From positions 1 through 44,423 of IMG/VR virus record IMGVR_UViG_3300046747_000088: a DNA stretch of 44,423 bases; one strand, given 5' to 3'. The notes beneath the pieces were generated by a model. The model was given only the letters and a program-made list of their open reading frames with translations, ran no database searches and was not told where the DNA came from. Positions 1 to 13,968 of the stretch are shown piece by piece; position 1 is the first letter of the stretch; the number at the start of each line of letters is the position of its first letter. Origin of the DNA: a virus. The position numbers and the translations under genes were made by a program.

Positions 1-17
1 ACACGTTCGTAAAGGCG

Positions 18-233
18 GTGGGCGCTGACACGCTCGACCTGGCGCTCGACTCTGCCGGGAAAGACGAGAGCGACGTAGGTCACGATCTCTGGTTGACCCG
101 GCGCGGACACGGCGCCGGTTTCTGGGATGGCGATTGGCCTATGCCGTATTCGGTGGACTTCTCGGACGCGGCGCGCGGCCTGGGCGACTGCGATCTATAC
201 CGGGGCGACGATGGGCGGTTGTATCTGGCCTAG
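18..233 (+). CDS. Phage hypothetical protein, probably 5'-truncated
   Basis: The protein contains the signature GHDLWLTRRGHGAGFWDG (about residues 21-38) followed by an acidic region and GDCDLYRGDDGRLYLA. I recognise this as the C-terminal part of a widespread phage/plasmid hypothetical family (DFWLTRNGHGAGFWDR). Family members usually have a further 50-80 N-terminal residues. Here the reading frame is open to the window edge, so either the true start lies outside the window or a shortened protein starts at the GTG at position 18 (weak AAAGG upstream). It is the first gene of a run of small plus-strand genes. No function is known. The TAG stop is followed directly by the first tRNA-like element. 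Confidence 0.6.
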   Translation: MGADTLDLALDSAGKDESDVGHDLWLTRRGHGAGFWDGDWPMPYSVDFSDAARGLGDCDLYRGDDGRLYLA

Positions 234-346: not shown

Positions 347-532
347 ATGAGTATTGAAGAACGACACGCGCTGATGATCGCCGAGGTAACGCTCGACGGT
401 CGGCCGGCGATCATCTCGGGGTGGGCGCTCGACTATGCGCAGGTTCGGAGCTTGGACGGCGCGCTATCGGGCGAATGGGCCTGGGCGACGGCGGCGCGGA
501 TCGTCGGGAGGGGCGGCGCGTTCCGCACCTGA
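347..532 (+). CDS. Small phage hypothetical protein (61 aa)
   Basis: I do not recognise a family. The product begins MSIEERHALMIAEVTLDG and contains SGEWAWATAARIVGRGG near its end. The start is chosen because the conserved GATCGGAG sits 5 nt upstream; longer readings of this frame would run through tRNA-like element 1. The gene stands alone between two tRNA-like elements, about 60 nt after the first and 8 nt before the second. Codon use is GC-rich like its neighbours. Confidence 0.6.
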   Translation: MSIEERHALMIAEVTLDGRPAIISGWALDYAQVRSLDGALSGEWAWATAARIVGRGGAFRT

Positions 533-540
533 ACGGAGAC

Positions 541-581
541 GGCGCGAACGGTTACACCCCGGTTCAATTCCGGGGCGCGTC
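541..581 (+). ncRNA. tRNA-like minihelix element 2
   Basis: Outer stem GGCGCG (541-546) pairs with CGCGTC (576-581), six pairs with one G-T. The linker AACGGTTACA is nearly the same D-loop-like string as in element 1. The T-arm is CCCCGG/CCGGGG (six pairs, 557-562 with 570-575) around loop TTCAATT, also a legal T-loop. The stems differ in sequence from element 1 yet keep pairing. The element begins 8 nt after the preceding stop codon. Confidence 0.72.
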
Positions 582-583
582 TT

Positions 584-3018: not shown

Positions 3019-3099
3019 ATGCGCGCGAACAAAAACGGCGCCGAAGGGTTTGACCCCAACGACGCCGCGTCTCAACAGATCGGAGTAGATCAATCGTGA
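3019..3099 (+). CDS. Possible 26-aa peptide
   Basis: An ATG directly after the preceding TAG opens a 26-codon frame (MRANKNGAEGFDPNDAASQQ..) with GGAG at suitable distance upstream. Its last codons contain the conserved GATCGGAG, so the sequence may equally be only the leader of the next gene. Low confidence because of size. Confidence 0.3.
   Translation: MRANKNGAEGFDPNDAASQQIGVDQS
3078..3085 (+). promoter_or_regulatory. Ribosome-binding sequence GATCGGAG (copy 5)
   Basis: It lies 10 nt before a GTG at 3096 that is in frame with the HTH gene. A second, canonical Shine-Dalgarno (GGAAGGAGG) lies just before ATG 3141, so the gene has two plausible starts. Confidence 0.45.
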
Positions 3100-8289: not shown

Positions 8290-9597
8290 TTAGAACCTCG
8301 GTTCTGCGGTTGTGTTTTCGGTCTTAGAAACGGCCTCGACGAAGCGCATCCGGTCCCCGTTGAACTCGACGGAGATCCGGCCCGGCGTTCCGTTGCGGAC
8401 CTTGGTGAAGTAGGCGATGCCGGAGTTGAGCTTCCGGCCGGTGGCATCGTTCTGATCGCGATGCACGAAGAGCACGTTGTCCGCGTCGTTCTCAAGCGAG
8501 CCGGTGCCGCGCAGGTTCGCGCCGTTGGGCGGCGGCACAATGCCGTCCCGCACGGTCGGCTTGCTGACATGCGCGCAGAGCAGGATGTGGCAGTTGGCCT
8601 GCGACACCTTCGGGACTTCGTTGAGCACGCGCGACTTCTCGTCGAGCTCGGTTGTCAGGTTGCCGCCTGGGAGCTTGTGGAAAATGTCGATCGCCGCGAT
8701 GTCCCACTTGCGTCGGCGAATGTCGCGCGCGAGATCCTGAGCCGTCCACCCTGCGCAATCGGTAATCCCGAACGGCATGTGTCCAAGCCGGGCGACAACC
8801 TTGCGCGCCTCTTCCATCTGCATCGGTTCGCTTTCGAGCCGCGAGAAAGACACGTCGGCGAGACGGGCGAGGGTGCGCAGCGCGCGCTCTTCGGGCGTCA
8901 TCTCGTTGATGTAGAGATGCGCGCGCAGGTCGAGCCTGATTGCCGCGTGCTCAAGGATCTGGTCAGCGATGACGGACTTGCCGTGACTCGTGTACCCGGA
9001 GATCAGCGTCAGCGCCCCGCGCCTCAAACCCCCGTGAATGAGCTTGTTCAGCCGGGGCCAAGGCGTCGGGAACACCTCGGGGTGCGAGTCGAGGTAGTCG
9101 AACAGCAGATCGCCGACCTGCTCGGGGTTGTAGCTGTGGGCCGGGAGCGGACCGCCCGTGAGAAGCTTGCCCTCGATCGCCTTGATCTGCTCCCAGTCCT
9201 CCAAGCCGGCCGACTCGATCAGGCCGTAGCCGGCTGCCTGGTAGTCGCGCAGGTGCGCACACTCGACGACCCGCTCGGCGTAATGGAGCGCGTGCGCGAG
9301 GCTCGGCACCCTCGTTAGCATCGCCTCGACGCGCGCGTTCCACTCGTGCGGCTGGATGCTCTGATCCTGCACGGAGCACTCTGCCGCAACGGTCACGTTG
9401 TCAATCGGATCGGTTGCCTCTTCAAGCTCGATCATCACCGCGAACATGCGGCGCAGAGTCGGCACGTAGAAGTGCTCGGGCTTGAGGCCAGCCTCCCCGG
9501 TGAGCTTCGCCAGCATGATCGGTGTCAGAAGCAGGCATCCCACGACGGCCTCTTCTGCGCCCTGGTCGTGCGGGACTCGGGTGTCGCTGCCGATCAT
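8290..9597 (-). CDS. DnaB-like replicative helicase
   Basis: A hexameric 5'-3' replicative DNA helicase. The N-terminal DnaB domain is present (EEAVVGCLLLTPIMLAKL, residues 15-32, through LRDYQAAGYGLI), followed by the RecA-like core: Walker A GYTSHGKS (201-208), MTPEERALRTLARLADV, Walker B WDIAAIDIFHKL (Asp304) and a loop rich in Arg/Gly (NGANLRGTGSLENDADNV). Length (435 aa) fits the family. It overlaps the upstream replication initiator by 4 nt, the usual initiator-helicase pair that opens and loads at the phage origin. No primase domain is visible here or nearby. Confidence 0.92.
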   Translation of the reverse strand: MIGSDTRVPHDQGAEEAVVGCLLLTPIMLAKLTGEAGLKPEHFYVPTLRRMFAVMIELEEATDPIDNVTVAAECSVQDQSIQPHEWNARVEAMLTRVPSLAHALHYAERVVECAHLRDYQAAGYGLIESAGLEDWEQIKAIEGKLLTGGPLPAHSYNPEQVGDLLFDYLDSHPEVFPTPWPRLNKLIHGGLRRGALTLISGYTSHGKSVIADQILEHAAIRLDLRAHLYINEMTPEERALRTLARLADVSFSRLESEPMQMEEARKVVARLGHMPFGITDCAGWTAQDLARDIRRRKWDIAAIDIFHKLPGGNLTTELDEKSRVLNEVPKVSQANCHILLCAHVSKPTVRDGIVPPPNGANLRGTGSLENDADNVLFVHRDQNDATGRKLNSGIAYFTKVRNGTPGRISVEFNGDRMRFVEAVSKTENTTAEPRF

Positions 9598-10508
9598 CGC
9601 GCCGCCCCCGCGAGCACGACTTCGCTGGCCCGGTCGAACGGGAACTCTCCCGCCCTGCGCGCCTCGGCGATCTCGTCATCGGTCATCACCGATCGCGTCT
9701 CGCGGATCTTCTTGGCGGTCGGGCGCTCGACCTGTGGCCGCATCTCGGCGAAGCGCTCTACGTTGTCGCCGTTGCGGAAGATCAGGCCGATCGAGTTGTA
9801 CTTCTTACCGCCGTGCGCCACGTCGTTCGCGTGGTCGCGGCCCATATGCCAGTCGCTCGACGCGCACCCGTCGATGGCGGCGATCAGCGTGTCGGGCGGA
9901 TAGCCGTCGTTCAGCCGGGCGAGGATCTTGCGTTTGCGATCGTCCGTGAACTTCGGCCGGCGCTGCGGCTGCATCGCCTCGATCCAATGGTCGAACACGG
10001 CGCGCGCAATGGTTGCTTTCGGGTCGCTACTCCGGCCGTTGGGACTGACGGTCTTTGAGGGTGAAGTTTCTTTACTTGTTTCTTTCTCTGGTTCTCTTTG
10101 GTTCTGGTTCCTTATGGCCTGGACATTTGCGTCCCCTAGGTTGTGCCCATTTGCGTCCCCTTTGGCCTGGACATTTGCGTCCCCTTTGGCCTGGTCAGAT
10201 TTGTCCTCTGGTTCCTTGAAGATCAGGTGGTACGAGTCCCGTGCTCGCGACCCGTTGGAGTGGACGTGATGCTGCCGTTCGAGCGCGCCGGCCTGCTCCA
10301 ATTCGATGAGCGCACGGCGCACGGTCTTGACCGCGAACCCGGATGTCTCGGCGATGAGCTCGACGCTGGGAAACGCTTCGCCCGTCTCGCGGTCGGCCCA
10401 CTTGCCGGCGAGCAAGGTGAAGACCTTGAGGGCCGTGGTACTGATCCGGTCCAGCAGATGCAGGGGGACCACGGCGTATGGTCCAATGTCGGATCGCAGA
10501 CCGCTCAC
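9594..10508 (-). CDS. Replication initiator / replisome organiser (winged helix)
   Basis: The N-terminal winged helix is clear (TALKVFTLLAGKW, FPSVELIAETSG, FAVKTVRRALIELEQAGALE, residues about 25-80). A hydrophilic middle contains 8-residue repeats (GDANVQAK, GDANGHNL, GDANVQAI, about 108-132). The C-terminal part (RAVFDHWIEAMQ, KILARLNDGYPPDTLIAAI) resembles the conserved C-terminal segment of phage replication proteins that contact helicase. Layout and the directly following helicase gene match lambda O/P-type systems. The DNA that encodes the repeats forms iterons, so the origin probably lies inside this gene. GTG start; the ribosome-binding site is weak. Confidence 0.82.
   Translation of the reverse strand: MSGLRSDIGPYAVVPLHLLDRISTTALKVFTLLAGKWADRETGEAFPSVELIAETSGFAVKTVRRALIELEQAGALERQHHVHSNGSRARDSYHLIFKEPEDKSDQAKGDANVQAKGDANGHNLGDANVQAIRNQNQREPEKETSKETSPSKTVSPNGRSSDPKATIARAVFDHWIEAMQPQRRPKFTDDRKRKILARLNDGYPPDTLIAAIDGCASSDWHMGRDHANDVAHGGKKYNSIGLIFRNGDNVERFAEMRPQVERPTAKKIRETRSVMTDDEIAEARRAGEFPFDRASEVVLAGAAR
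10058..10115. other. AT-rich, strand-asymmetric stretch beside the iterons (candidate unwinding region)
   Basis: In a GC-rich genome this stretch is dominated by T and is almost free of A on the plus strand (for example TTTCTTTACTTGTTTCTTTC). It directly abuts the iterons, as the AT-rich element abuts the iterons of the lambda origin. Inferred to be the DNA-unwinding element. Confidence 0.5.
10116..10206. repeat. Iterons: candidate replication origin
   Basis: The core ATTTGCGTCCCC occurs at 10125-10136, 10149-10160 and 10173-10184, exactly 24 bp apart, with a degenerate fourth unit near 10188-10206. GGCCTGGACA precedes units 1 and 3. The units code for the 8-residue repeats of the initiator, so they are both protein repeats and DNA repeats. 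A 24-bp period in the initiator gene next to an AT-rich stretch is the classical lambdoid origin arrangement. Confidence 0.65.
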
Positions 10509-10522
10509 ACCCGCATCCCGAC

Positions 10523-10551
10523 TTGCTTCTGCCTATGAACTGTGTTACGAT
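10523..10551 (+). promoter_or_regulatory. Putative promoter of the serine integrase unit, overlapping a recurrent motif
   Basis: TTGCTT (10523-10528) and TACGAT (10546-10551) are 17 bp apart. The second half belongs to TGTTACGATTGGGCAC (10543-10558), a relative of the TGTAACAATCGGCAC motif found upstream of several late genes on their coding strand. Weak -35 match; the motif recurrence is stronger evidence than the hexamers. Confidence 0.4.
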
Positions 10552-10558
10552 TGGGCAC

Positions 10559-10606
10559 ACTTTCGCGAATTACCCGTCCTCGATAGAACGGGGAAACTGC
10601 GAAAGT
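10559..10606. other. Candidate attP site of the serine integrase
   Basis: A 48-bp imperfect dyad centred at 10582/10583: outer arms ACTTTCGC (10559-10566) and GCGAAAGT (10599-10606) and inner arms CCCGT (10573-10577) and ACGGG (10588-10592) are placed symmetrically about the same point. The centre is not palindromic. Size, symmetry and position just upstream of a large serine integrase gene match attP sites such as that of Bxb1. The predicted crossover dinucleotide would be GA at 10582-10583. An operator is the alternative. Confidence 0.6.
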
Positions 10607-10756
10607 CCTGCTAATCGCACACAAAGGACTGTTCGTGAAACCTCTAAGAAATGCCGGTCCGCACCGGAACGCAAAAAGTGGAATACTCCCGGACTTCGGA
10701 AATTGCTCAGACACGGGGAGTGCAACATGGAGCACAGGCACAGTTGGAGGAGAACT

Positions 10757-12184
10757 GTGAACCTGGACGGTTACATCAGAGTCAGTAGGGTCGCCGGCCG
10801 AAGCGGGGATAGCTTCATCAGCCCCGGCGAACAGCGCCAGAAGATTTCGGATTGGGCCAAGTCCAACGGCTACACGATCTCGAACTGGTACGAAGAGCTC
10901 GACAAGTCGGGCAGCACAACGGATCGACCGATGCTTATGGAGATCGTCGATCGCATCGAGAAGGGAGCGACCAGCGGCATCGTCGTCGCGAAGCTCGACC
11001 GCTTCTCGCGCACGCTGCTCGGCAGCGCCGAGATCATCCGACGCATCGAAGCGTGCGAGGGCGAGTTCTTTTCCGTCTCCGAAGGATCCCTCAAGGATTC
11101 CCAGGGGCGGCTCTACAGGAACATCCTGCTCGCCGTTGCGGAAGGCGAGTGGGATCGCGTGAAGCTGCAATGGGTCGATGCGCGTCGGAATGCGATCAAC
11201 CGGGGTTTGTTTACCGGCCCTCATGTTCCCTTCGGGTACACCAAGCCCCCTGAGTTCGATGCAGAGGGCAAGAAAATCGACGACCGTCAACTTGTACCAA
11301 ACAAAGATGCGGAAGGCGTCAAGGCTATGTTCGCCGCGCGCGTCGAAGGCCGCAAAGTGCGGCAGATCGCGGAGATGTTGAACGATGCCGGGTACAAGCC
11401 GGTCCGTAGTCAGCGGTTCACCGCCGCGTCCGTCCACAAGATGCTCCGCAACCGGACCTACCTCGGGGAAGTGCGCAGCGGGCAGTTCGTTCGTCCCGAC
11501 TCGCACGAGCCGTTGGTCGGACCGGCCGTGTTCGAGTTCGTTCAGCCGACACCGCGCGCCGCACGTTCGCTCGAAGCGAAGAGCCTGCTCGCCGGCCTGC
11601 TCCGTTGCTCGGGCTGCCGTCATGTCATGGTGCAGGCGAAGGGTCGGCGTGACGCGGCGAAGTTCGACTACCGCTGCCGCAAGGACCACCACGAGTCCGG
11701 CCTGTGCGAAGTCTGCTCGATCGTCAAGTCTCAGGAAGTCGAGCAGTTCGTCGTCAAGCAGTTTTTGAAGAAGGTCAAGACGATGCCCAAGAGCAGCGAG
11801 TTCGACGACGCCCGTCGCGCGCTCGATGCGGCAGAGCACGAGTACGGCCTCTACATCGCAGACGACGACTTCGCCCATCAGATCGGCCACGATCGCTGGA
11901 AGGCCGGAATCATCCCACGCAAGGAACGGGTAGACCAGGCGCGCATTGAGCTCTCGGCGGCCGCAGCGCGCGAGCGTAGCCTTGACTTGGGGATGGTGGG
12001 CGACGACTGGCAGGATCTCCCTGTTGGGGAGCAGCGCGAGTTCCTGTCAACCGTGATCGATGGGATCTTCATCCGTCCGGGGGAAGCTGTCAAGGACAGG
12101 GTGAAGATCTGCTGGACGGGCGAGATGCCCGAGGTTCCGATGCGGGGCCACTCGAAGTACGTGCTGCAACCGTACTCGTGGTGA
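10757..12184 (+). CDS. Large serine recombinase (phage integrase)
   Basis: A serine integrase of 475 aa that would recombine attP with a host attB. The N-terminal resolvase fold is complete: YIRVSR with nucleophile Ser10, then AKLDRFSRTLLG with the conserved Asp and Arg. The recombinase domain (VPFGYTKP to KMLRNRTYLGEVRSG) is followed by a zinc ribbon (CSGCRHVM, YRCRKDHHESGLC) and a long coiled coil (FDDARRALDAAEHEY). GTG 10757 is chosen because GGAGGAGA lies 4 nt upstream and the family starts this close to the catalytic serine; ATG 10727 is a weaker option. A candidate attP lies upstream and a strong terminator downstream. Confidence 0.93.
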   Translation: MNLDGYIRVSRVAGRSGDSFISPGEQRQKISDWAKSNGYTISNWYEELDKSGSTTDRPMLMEIVDRIEKGATSGIVVAKLDRFSRTLLGSAEIIRRIEACEGEFFSVSEGSLKDSQGRLYRNILLAVAEGEWDRVKLQWVDARRNAINRGLFTGPHVPFGYTKPPEFDAEGKKIDDRQLVPNKDAEGVKAMFAARVEGRKVRQIAEMLNDAGYKPVRSQRFTAASVHKMLRNRTYLGEVRSGQFVRPDSHEPLVGPAVFEFVQPTPRAARSLEAKSLLAGLLRCSGCRHVMVQAKGRRDAAKFDYRCRKDHHESGLCEVCSIVKSQEVEQFVVKQFLKKVKTMPKSSEFDDARRALDAAEHEYGLYIADDDFAHQIGHDRWKAGIIPRKERVDQARIELSAAAARERSLDLGMVGDDWQDLPVGEQREFLSTVIDGIFIRPGEAVKDRVKICWTGEMPEVPMRGHSKYVLQPYSW

Positions 12185-12579: not shown

Positions 12580-13070
12580 AGCTCGACGACCTGAACCTCA
12601 ACATCAGCGTTACCGAAGTCCTTGATTAGAACCTCGCGGACGATCTGCGCGTCGTCGCGGTAGATCACCCCGGTCATTGCATCCTCGACGGCGCGTGCCA
12701 GCTTGAGCACGTCGGGTTTCTTGGCCGGGTACTCGGGCGCTGAGTCCTTGAGCTTGCCGGCGTTCTTCCCGGTGCCGTAGTGACCCTTCGGGCGGGGGAC
12801 GTGAAACCGGAACTGCACGAAGAGCGCGCCCTCCATAAGCTCGCGCCCACGGTGCGCCTCTCCCGCGATCTGCGCGACCTGATCTTTCCAGGGCCGCGCC
12901 TTCTTGTTGGCATCTGACACCTGCACCCGCTGAGTCTTCGGGTTGTACCAGCCGGACTTTGAGCCGGCCGGTTGCGGCGTACCGTGGACGACGAAGCTGA
13001 CCGCTTTAGGCGGCGAGGTTGTCGGCGACCCGTTGGACTGCCTTGGCTCTGTCAGGGTGGGCGTAGACAT
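12576..13070 (-). CDS. rusA: RusA-family Holliday junction resolvase
   Basis: The family pattern is clear: VSFVVHGTPQPAGSKSGWYN near the start, then FRFHVPRPKGHYGTGKNAG, then the acidic metal-binding segment KPDVLKLARAVEDAMTGVIY with RDDAQIV (Asp residues that bind magnesium). RusA cuts four-way DNA junctions and resolves replication or recombination intermediates. The first 65 nt overlap the end of the tyrosine recombinase gene upstream; no good later start is visible. It ends the recombination operon. Confidence 0.9.
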   Translation of the reverse strand: MSTPTLTEPRQSNGSPTTSPPKAVSFVVHGTPQPAGSKSGWYNPKTQRVQVSDANKKARPWKDQVAQIAGEAHRGRELMEGALFVQFRFHVPRPKGHYGTGKNAGKLKDSAPEYPAKKPDVLKLARAVEDAMTGVIYRDDAQIVREVLIKDFGNADVEVQVVEL

Positions 13071-13968
13071 CGTGCAAGAGTCTGGGGTTAGTATGGCCGA
13101 ACATCACGACGGCGGCGTCTCTGTCGAGAACCCCCCGGTCGGCCAGAGTCGTCGCGTAGTGGTGGCGCAAGAGATGCCAGTTCATGTCCTCTAGACCGGC
13201 TGCCTCGCGGACAGGTTTCATCAGACGGTGGAGCTTCTGCCGCGTCAGCTTCTTGCCCTCGTGCGAGAAGAGCAGACGGTTCACCGATCGGCGTTGCAGA
13301 ACGTGCGCGACCTCGGGCGGCGCAGGTACTACCCGGTAGGTATCGTGCTTGCCGATCAGGTGTATCCGCATCGAATCGGCGGACGAATCAAGCTGATGAG
13401 GTTCAAGCCCTACAAGCTCGTGTAAGCGCAAGCCTGTCTGACTGGCTGTATGGATCAGATCATGCACGAGAAGGGCTGTAGCGCCCGTGTGGACGACGAG
13501 AGCCGTGCTTGCAGCATTTGTTACTTGCTCCTGTGTCGGCGGCATCTTCGTCTTCTTCTTGCGCGTGACCGCGAGTCCCGTGAAGGGGTTGTCCTCGCAG
13601 ATCCCGAGCTTCACCCCGTACTGAAATAGCGCCTTCACGTAGCGCGCCGAAGAGAACTGATCGTGCGCCCAGAAGACCGCCTCAAGTCGGATGACCGATG
13701 CTGCCGGCCGGGGTCCGTATCGAGCGGCGAAGCGCGCCGTCATCTGCCGGTTGTGCGCGTTCGTGTGCGGCTCGATGTCCGGCCTCGTGACCCAGCGCTC
13801 GACGAGCTCGTTGATCGTCACCGTTGGGTAGGGCGAGCGCAGCGTTCGGTCGATCGCGGCCTGCGCCTGGTCCTGTTGCTCGAAGGTGGCAATCCATAGT
13901 TGCCGATCTCCGAAGGTGATCCGTGCGCCGTACTTACCCGAGCGCCGGACGATGGTTCCGTTTGTCAT
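13006..13968 (-). CDS. Tyrosine recombinase / integrase
   Basis: A 320-aa tyrosine recombinase. All catalytic residues are in place: Arg181 (TGLRLHELVGL), Lys207 (GKHDTYRVV), His265 and Arg268 (HLLRHHYAT), His292 (GHTNPRLLHD) and nucleophile Tyr302 (DVYAHPD). The N-terminus has an arm-binding-like segment (KYGARITFGDRQLWIATF) and a core-binding domain (TINELVERWVT to LFQYGVKLGIC). The start is fixed by GATCGGAG 5 nt upstream. It is a second, apparently intact integrase in addition to the serine enzyme and sits between zinc-protein genes and RusA. It may act in excision, in dimer resolution or as an alternative integrase; no att core was recognised beside it. Confidence 0.93.
   Translation of the reverse strand: MTNGTIVRRSGKYGARITFGDRQLWIATFEQQDQAQAAIDRTLRSPYPTVTINELVERWVTRPDIEPHTNAHNRQMTARFAARYGPRPAASVIRLEAVFWAHDQFSSARYVKALFQYGVKLGICEDNPFTGLAVTRKKKTKMPPTQEQVTNAASTALVVHTGATALLVHDLIHTASQTGLRLHELVGLEPHQLDSSADSMRIHLIGKHDTYRVVPAPPEVAHVLQRRSVNRLLFSHEGKKLTRQKLHRLMKPVREAAGLEDMNWHLLRHHYATTLADRGVLDRDAAVVMFGHTNPRLLHDVYAHPDRAKAVQRVADNLAA

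What the first reader, a model, noticed from the sequence alone, without database searches (positions are those of the whole stretch)
10559..10606. Candidate attP with 48-bp dyad symmetry
Outer 8-bp and inner 5-bp arms share one exact centre (10582/10583), with a non-palindromic middle, 150 bp upstream of a complete large serine integrase. Known serine-integrase attP sites have this size, partial symmetry and place. It gives a concrete prediction of the crossover dinucleotide, GA.
Basis: partly seen in the sequence, partly recalled or inferred. Interest (0 to 1): 0.68.

Follow-up and report, generated by a model that had tools for sequence, protein, structure and literature searches.

The report
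Phage serine-integrase attachment site (attP)
The 48-base mirror-like sequence just in front of this phage's integrase gene is most likely the ordinary spot (attP) where the integrase cuts the phage DNA to insert it into the host chromosome; it is well supported but of a well-known kind.

Summary
The dyad is real: 10559-10606 has 17 of 24 symmetric pairs, centred at 10582/10583. It is the best 48-bp even dyad in the window and the only one with the 8+5 arm pattern. Its pairs fall at offsets 2-3, 5-9, 11-12 and 16-23 from the centre. This nearly repeats Bxb1 attP (1, 3, 5-9, 12-13, 17-23) and puts the outer arm on the ZD motif (positions 16-24) of the solved A118 integrase-attP complex. The gene 150 bp away is an intact large serine integrase (10757-12184) whose subfamily is common in Solirubrobacterales. 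From empty sites in related genomes I mapped attL/attR of four elements carrying homologous integrases (37-39% identical). In all four the core lies about 30-112 bp upstream of the integrase gene. One rebuilt attP (G302a) has the same outer-arm geometry (17-23). Two others have dyads with shifted arms; one is weak. No lysogen of this phage or close relative was found, so attP and the GA crossover remain inferred for this phage. The site is a new member of a known kind, with modest interest. Noticed in passing: the same contig also encodes a second, catalytically complete-looking tyrosine recombinase.

The parts
10559..10606 (.). candidate attP, 48-bp imperfect dyad
   Evidence: 17/24 pairs, best even dyad in window; Bxb1 attP template 14/16
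10559..10566 (.). left outer arm ACTTTCGC (predicted zinc-ribbon-domain motif, positions 23-16)
   Evidence: sequence; offsets; ZD motif 16-24 in A118 attP (PMC3783163)
10599..10606 (.). right outer arm GCGAAAGT (predicted zinc-ribbon-domain motif, positions 16-23)
   Evidence: as above; perfect complement of left arm
10573..10577 (.). left inner arm CCCGT (predicted recombinase-domain region, positions 9-5)
   Evidence: same offsets paired in Bxb1 attP
10588..10592 (.). right inner arm ACGGG (positions 5-9)
10582..10583 (.). predicted crossover dinucleotide GA (non-palindromic)
   Evidence: exact centre of the dyad; in G302a and Bxb1 the outer-arm centre coincides with the core
10757..12184 (+). 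large serine integrase, 475 aa, GTG start, catalytic Ser10, Resolvase + Recombinase + zinc ribbon
   Evidence: (phrog_95 E=1.4e-73)
9594..10508 (-). divergent replication-initiation-like HTH gene; its start borders the intergenic region holding the dyad

Best explanation
10559-10606 is the attP site of the serine integrase encoded at 10757-12184. An integrase dimer would bind the two half-sites, with its recombinase domain near positions 5-11 and its zinc-ribbon domain on the outer arms at positions 16-23. It would synapse attP with a host attB, cut both at the 2-bp centre (predicted GA, 10582-10583), rotate and religate, leaving the prophage flanked by attL and attR with int just inside one end. 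Shown: the dyad, the intact integrase, the matching geometry, and att positions of homologous elements. Inferred: binding, cleavage and the exact crossover in this phage.
For: Dyad statistics. Pair offsets [2,3,5-9,11,12,16-23] against Bxb1 attP [1,3,5-9,12,13,17-23]; best Bxb1-template match of all centres in the window. The outer arm sits on the A118 ZD motif, positions 16-24 (PMC3783163). The integrase subfamily profile has as its best solved-structure match a 500-aa integrase (9iu2; I believe from my own knowledge that this is Bxb1). Four mapped elements with homologous integrases have their core about 30-112 bp upstream of int: G302a 11.6 kb, G359 44 kb, G186 40 kb, G290 8.4 kb. Rebuilt G302a attP has arms TTCTGCC/GGCAGAA at 17-23. 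Viral contigs L024/L025 carry a 17/24 dyad 108 bp upstream of a 32% identical integrase. The 48-bp Bxb1 attP lies directly upstream of int in related mycobacteriophages. No other copy of the long arm occurs in the window, as expected for a single att site.
Against: No lysogen or close relative of this phage was found, so there is no attL/attR for this exact site. Of the four mapped attP sites, two have arms at other offsets (G290 13-22, G186 12-17) and one has a weak dyad (G359, 11/24), so symmetry is not a strict marker. The centre is 174 bp from the start codon, farther than the roughly 30-112 bp of the mapped elements. The integrase homologies are only 31-39%.
Confidence: 0.87

Rival explanations
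1. The dyad is an operator for a phage repressor or regulator placed between the divergent replication-initiation gene and int, controlling one or both promoters.
For: It lies in a divergent intergenic region of 248 bp; the left arm contains a small palindrome TTCGCGAA (sequence).
Against: 48-bp two-step symmetry is unusual for an operator dimer. No second copy of the long arm within 3 mismatches exists in the window, whereas phage operators usually recur. No promoter-like pair passes the scan in 10400-10800. Fit to the Bxb1 attP template.
Confidence: 0.06
2. It acts as RNA: a structured leader hairpin on the int transcript or on the opposite strand, affecting stability or translation.
For: Both strands fold better than shuffles as RNA (z -3.9 and -5.2).
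Against: Any DNA dyad gives such a fold. No Rfam match in the window, no terminator on the dyad, no promoter support upstream.
Confidence: 0.03
3. The true attP lies elsewhere between 10509 and 10756, closer to int, with weak symmetry like G359; the dyad is incidental or regulatory.
For: Mapped relatives have cores about 30-112 bp upstream of int, and G359 has a weak dyad.
Against: The next best dyad in the region scores 11 against 17; the geometric match to Bxb1/A118 attP would then be a coincidence (0.017 expected per shuffled window).
Confidence: 0.08

Closest known systems
Mycobacteriophage Bxb1 attP (48 bp, core GT) and Bxb1 serine integrase
   Same: Same total size, inner arms at 5-9, outer arms ending at 23, centre dinucleotide non-palindromic, site directly upstream of int
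   Different: Different arm sequences and core (GA instead of GT); 150 bp from int instead of adjacent; the integrase is a distant homologue
Listeria phage A118 / LI integrase attP (structure 4kis)
   Same: Outer arm falls on the ZD motif, positions 16-24; pseudo-palindromic 25-bp half-sites (PMC3783163)
   Different: Arm sequences differ; integrase about 24% identical
Element G302a in a Solirubrobacterales genome (integrase 37% identical)
   Same: attP rebuilt from attL/attR has outer arms at 17-23 and lies just upstream of int
   Different: Arm sequence TTCTGCC, core AC, 11.6-kb element; no other window protein found in it

Membership tests
Large serine integrase attP site | Adjacent to an intact large serine integrase gene | tested here: met
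   10757-12184 has Resolvase, Recombinase and zinc-ribbon domains and the catalytic Ser10 region
Large serine integrase attP site | About 50-bp imperfect dyad with ZD-type outer arms around positions 16-24 and RD-region inner arms | tested here: met
   Offsets 5-9 and 16-23; compared with A118 and Bxb1
Large serine integrase attP site | Non-palindromic central dinucleotide | tested here: met
   GA at 10582-10583
Large serine integrase attP site | Same place as mapped att sites of homologous integrases (intergenic, just upstream of int) | tested here: met
   Four mapped elements; the window's distance is somewhat longer
Large serine integrase attP site | Splits into attL and attR at its centre in a lysogen | not testable with these tools
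   No lysogen or relative carrying this site was found
Large serine integrase attP site | Bound and recombined by the cognate integrase with attB | not testable with these tools
   Needs a bench assay
Repressor operator | Repeated copies at phage promoters | tested here: not met
   No second copy of the 19-nt arm within 3 mismatches

The most novel reading that the evidence does not exclude
The phage uses two independent recombination systems, a serine integrase with this attP and a complete-looking tyrosine recombinase encoded 0.8 kb downstream of the serine integrase gene on the other strand, either to reach two kinds of host site or to resolve and maintain its circular genome.
Probability: 0.15. 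Interest if true: 0.45.

Novelty: new member of a known kind. Interest (0 to 1): 0.25.

Why it matters
It gives a testable integrase/attP pair, with a predicted GA core, from phages of Solirubrobacterales, a little-studied soil group, and extends the Bxb1-type site geometry to a distant integrase subfamily. Such orthogonal integrase/site pairs are useful genetic tools. Biologically it is ordinary temperate-phage machinery.

Tried and rejected
Direct searches for relatives of the integrase or of the attP DNA in phages, viral contigs and genomes found none closer than 39%, and the arm pattern was absent from 2.9 million viral contigs. Alignments of very distant integrases were too diverse to search with. 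A left-flank search for G020 gave no empty site. Capsid and terminase searches of viral contigs found only L003 (84% identical terminase and capsid), a 10.6-kb contig outside the integrase region. A promoter upstream of the dyad (TTGCTT-17-TACGAT by eye) was dropped because the scan found none. An RNA-element reading was dropped for lack of any family match. An operator reading was weakened by the lack of repeated copies. For G230's syntenic prophage I looked for an integrase only by motif search, without a credible hit.

Full report
What was claimed.

Observation. The dyad is exactly as described: 17 of 24 symmetric positions pair around 10582/10583. It is the best even 48-bp dyad in the window and the only one with arms of at least 8 and 5. 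Within the 248-bp intergenic region the chance of such a dyad is about 0.0003-0.001, and the second best dyad there scores 11 against 17. Over 44 kb a 17/24 dyad alone would be expected about 0.5 times by chance, so raw symmetry is not decisive. Its detailed layout is: a 14/16 match to the Bxb1 attP pair pattern is expected 0.017 times per shuffled window.

Context. The window is a 44.4-kb virus record with podovirus-like terminase, portal, capsid and tail genes. The integrase, 10757-12184, 475 aa, has Resolvase, Recombinase and zinc-ribbon domains and matches the PHROG integrase family over 449 residues. Close homologues align from its GTG start, which fixes the start codon and the 150-bp spacing. 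The divergent neighbour 9594-10508 is a replication-initiation-like gene.

Relatives. No integrase above 39% identity was found. Homologues at 31-39% are common in Thermoleophilia, order Solirubrobacterales. A syntenic prophage with related terminase (38%), portal, capsid, tail and exonuclease genes lies in genome G230, of the same order. The host is therefore probably in that group (inference).

Mapping real att sites. For four elements carrying homologous integrases I searched the host DNA left of int in related genomes. Homology stops just upstream of int and resumes at the far end of the element. G302a stops at about 3031-3039 and resumes at about 14660, 11.6 kb. G359 stops at 2779 and resumes at about 46810, a 44-kb prophage in a GGDEF gene. 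G186 is 40 kb, beside or in an ECF sigma factor gene. G290 is 8.4 kb, in the RNase PH/Ham1 region. In all four the core lies about 30-112 bp upstream of int (with the positions; for G359 the core is taken at 2778-2779). Joining the half-sites gives attP sequences: G302a has core AC with arms TTCTGCC/GGCAGAA at positions 17-23, matching the window (16-23) and Bxb1 (17-23). G290 and G186 have dyads with arms at 13-22 and 12-17, and G359 has a weak dyad. The core assignments were chosen partly by symmetry among positions allowed by the junctions, so the G302a match is supportive and not fully independent. In a ranking of all dyads in the rebuilt regions the assigned centre came 1st, 1st, 3rd and 28th, so dyad search is a useful but imperfect locator.

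Independent yardsticks. The crystal structure of LI (A118) integrase on attP shows a zinc-ribbon motif at positions 16-24 and recombinase-domain contacts at 9-11 (PMC3783163). The window's outer arms are at 16-23. Phages with Bxb1-type integrase carry the 48-bp attP directly before int, and other serine-integrase phages (L007, L008) have strong dyads 26 and 124 bp before int. Viral contigs L024/L025, with a 32% identical integrase, have a 17/24 dyad at -108.

Mechanism. Most likely the integrase binds this site as a dimer, synapses it with a chromosomal attB, cuts at the central GA, exchanges strands and religates. Binding, cleavage and the exact dinucleotide are inferred.

Rivals. A repressor operator lacks repeated copies and promoter support. 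An RNA element lacks a family match. A different attP nearer to int cannot be fully excluded, because relatives have shorter spacings and one has weak symmetry.

Verdict. The finding is correct in observation and well supported in interpretation. It is a new member of a known kind with modest interest.

Noticed in passing
13006-13968 (-): A second, tyrosine-type recombinase with a complete-looking catalytic set (TGLRLHEL, HLLRHH, GHTN, DVY) sits about 0.8 kb downstream of the serine integrase gene on the opposite strand; two integrase types in one phage is unusual.
   Followed up: partly
493-582 (+): ARAGORN calls a tRNA-Arg (ccg) near the left end, but Rfam gives no tRNA match at its gathering score; doubtful.
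   Followed up: no
G359, G186, G290 (Solirubrobacterales genomes): Serine-integrase elements of this subfamily are inserted in or beside conserved genes: a GGDEF/EAL-type gene, an ECF sigma factor gene, and the RNase PH/Ham1 region.
   Followed up: partly
L166-L169 (G230): Prophage in a Solirubrobacterales genome syntenic with the window's terminase-portal-capsid-tail genes (30-42% identity), with no serine integrase of this family in the 80 kb fetched.
   Followed up: partly
10110-10195: Short repeats of the type TTTGCGTCCCCTTTGGCCTGG inside the replication-initiation gene, a possible iteron-like replication origin as in lambda O (inference from sequence).
   Followed up: no
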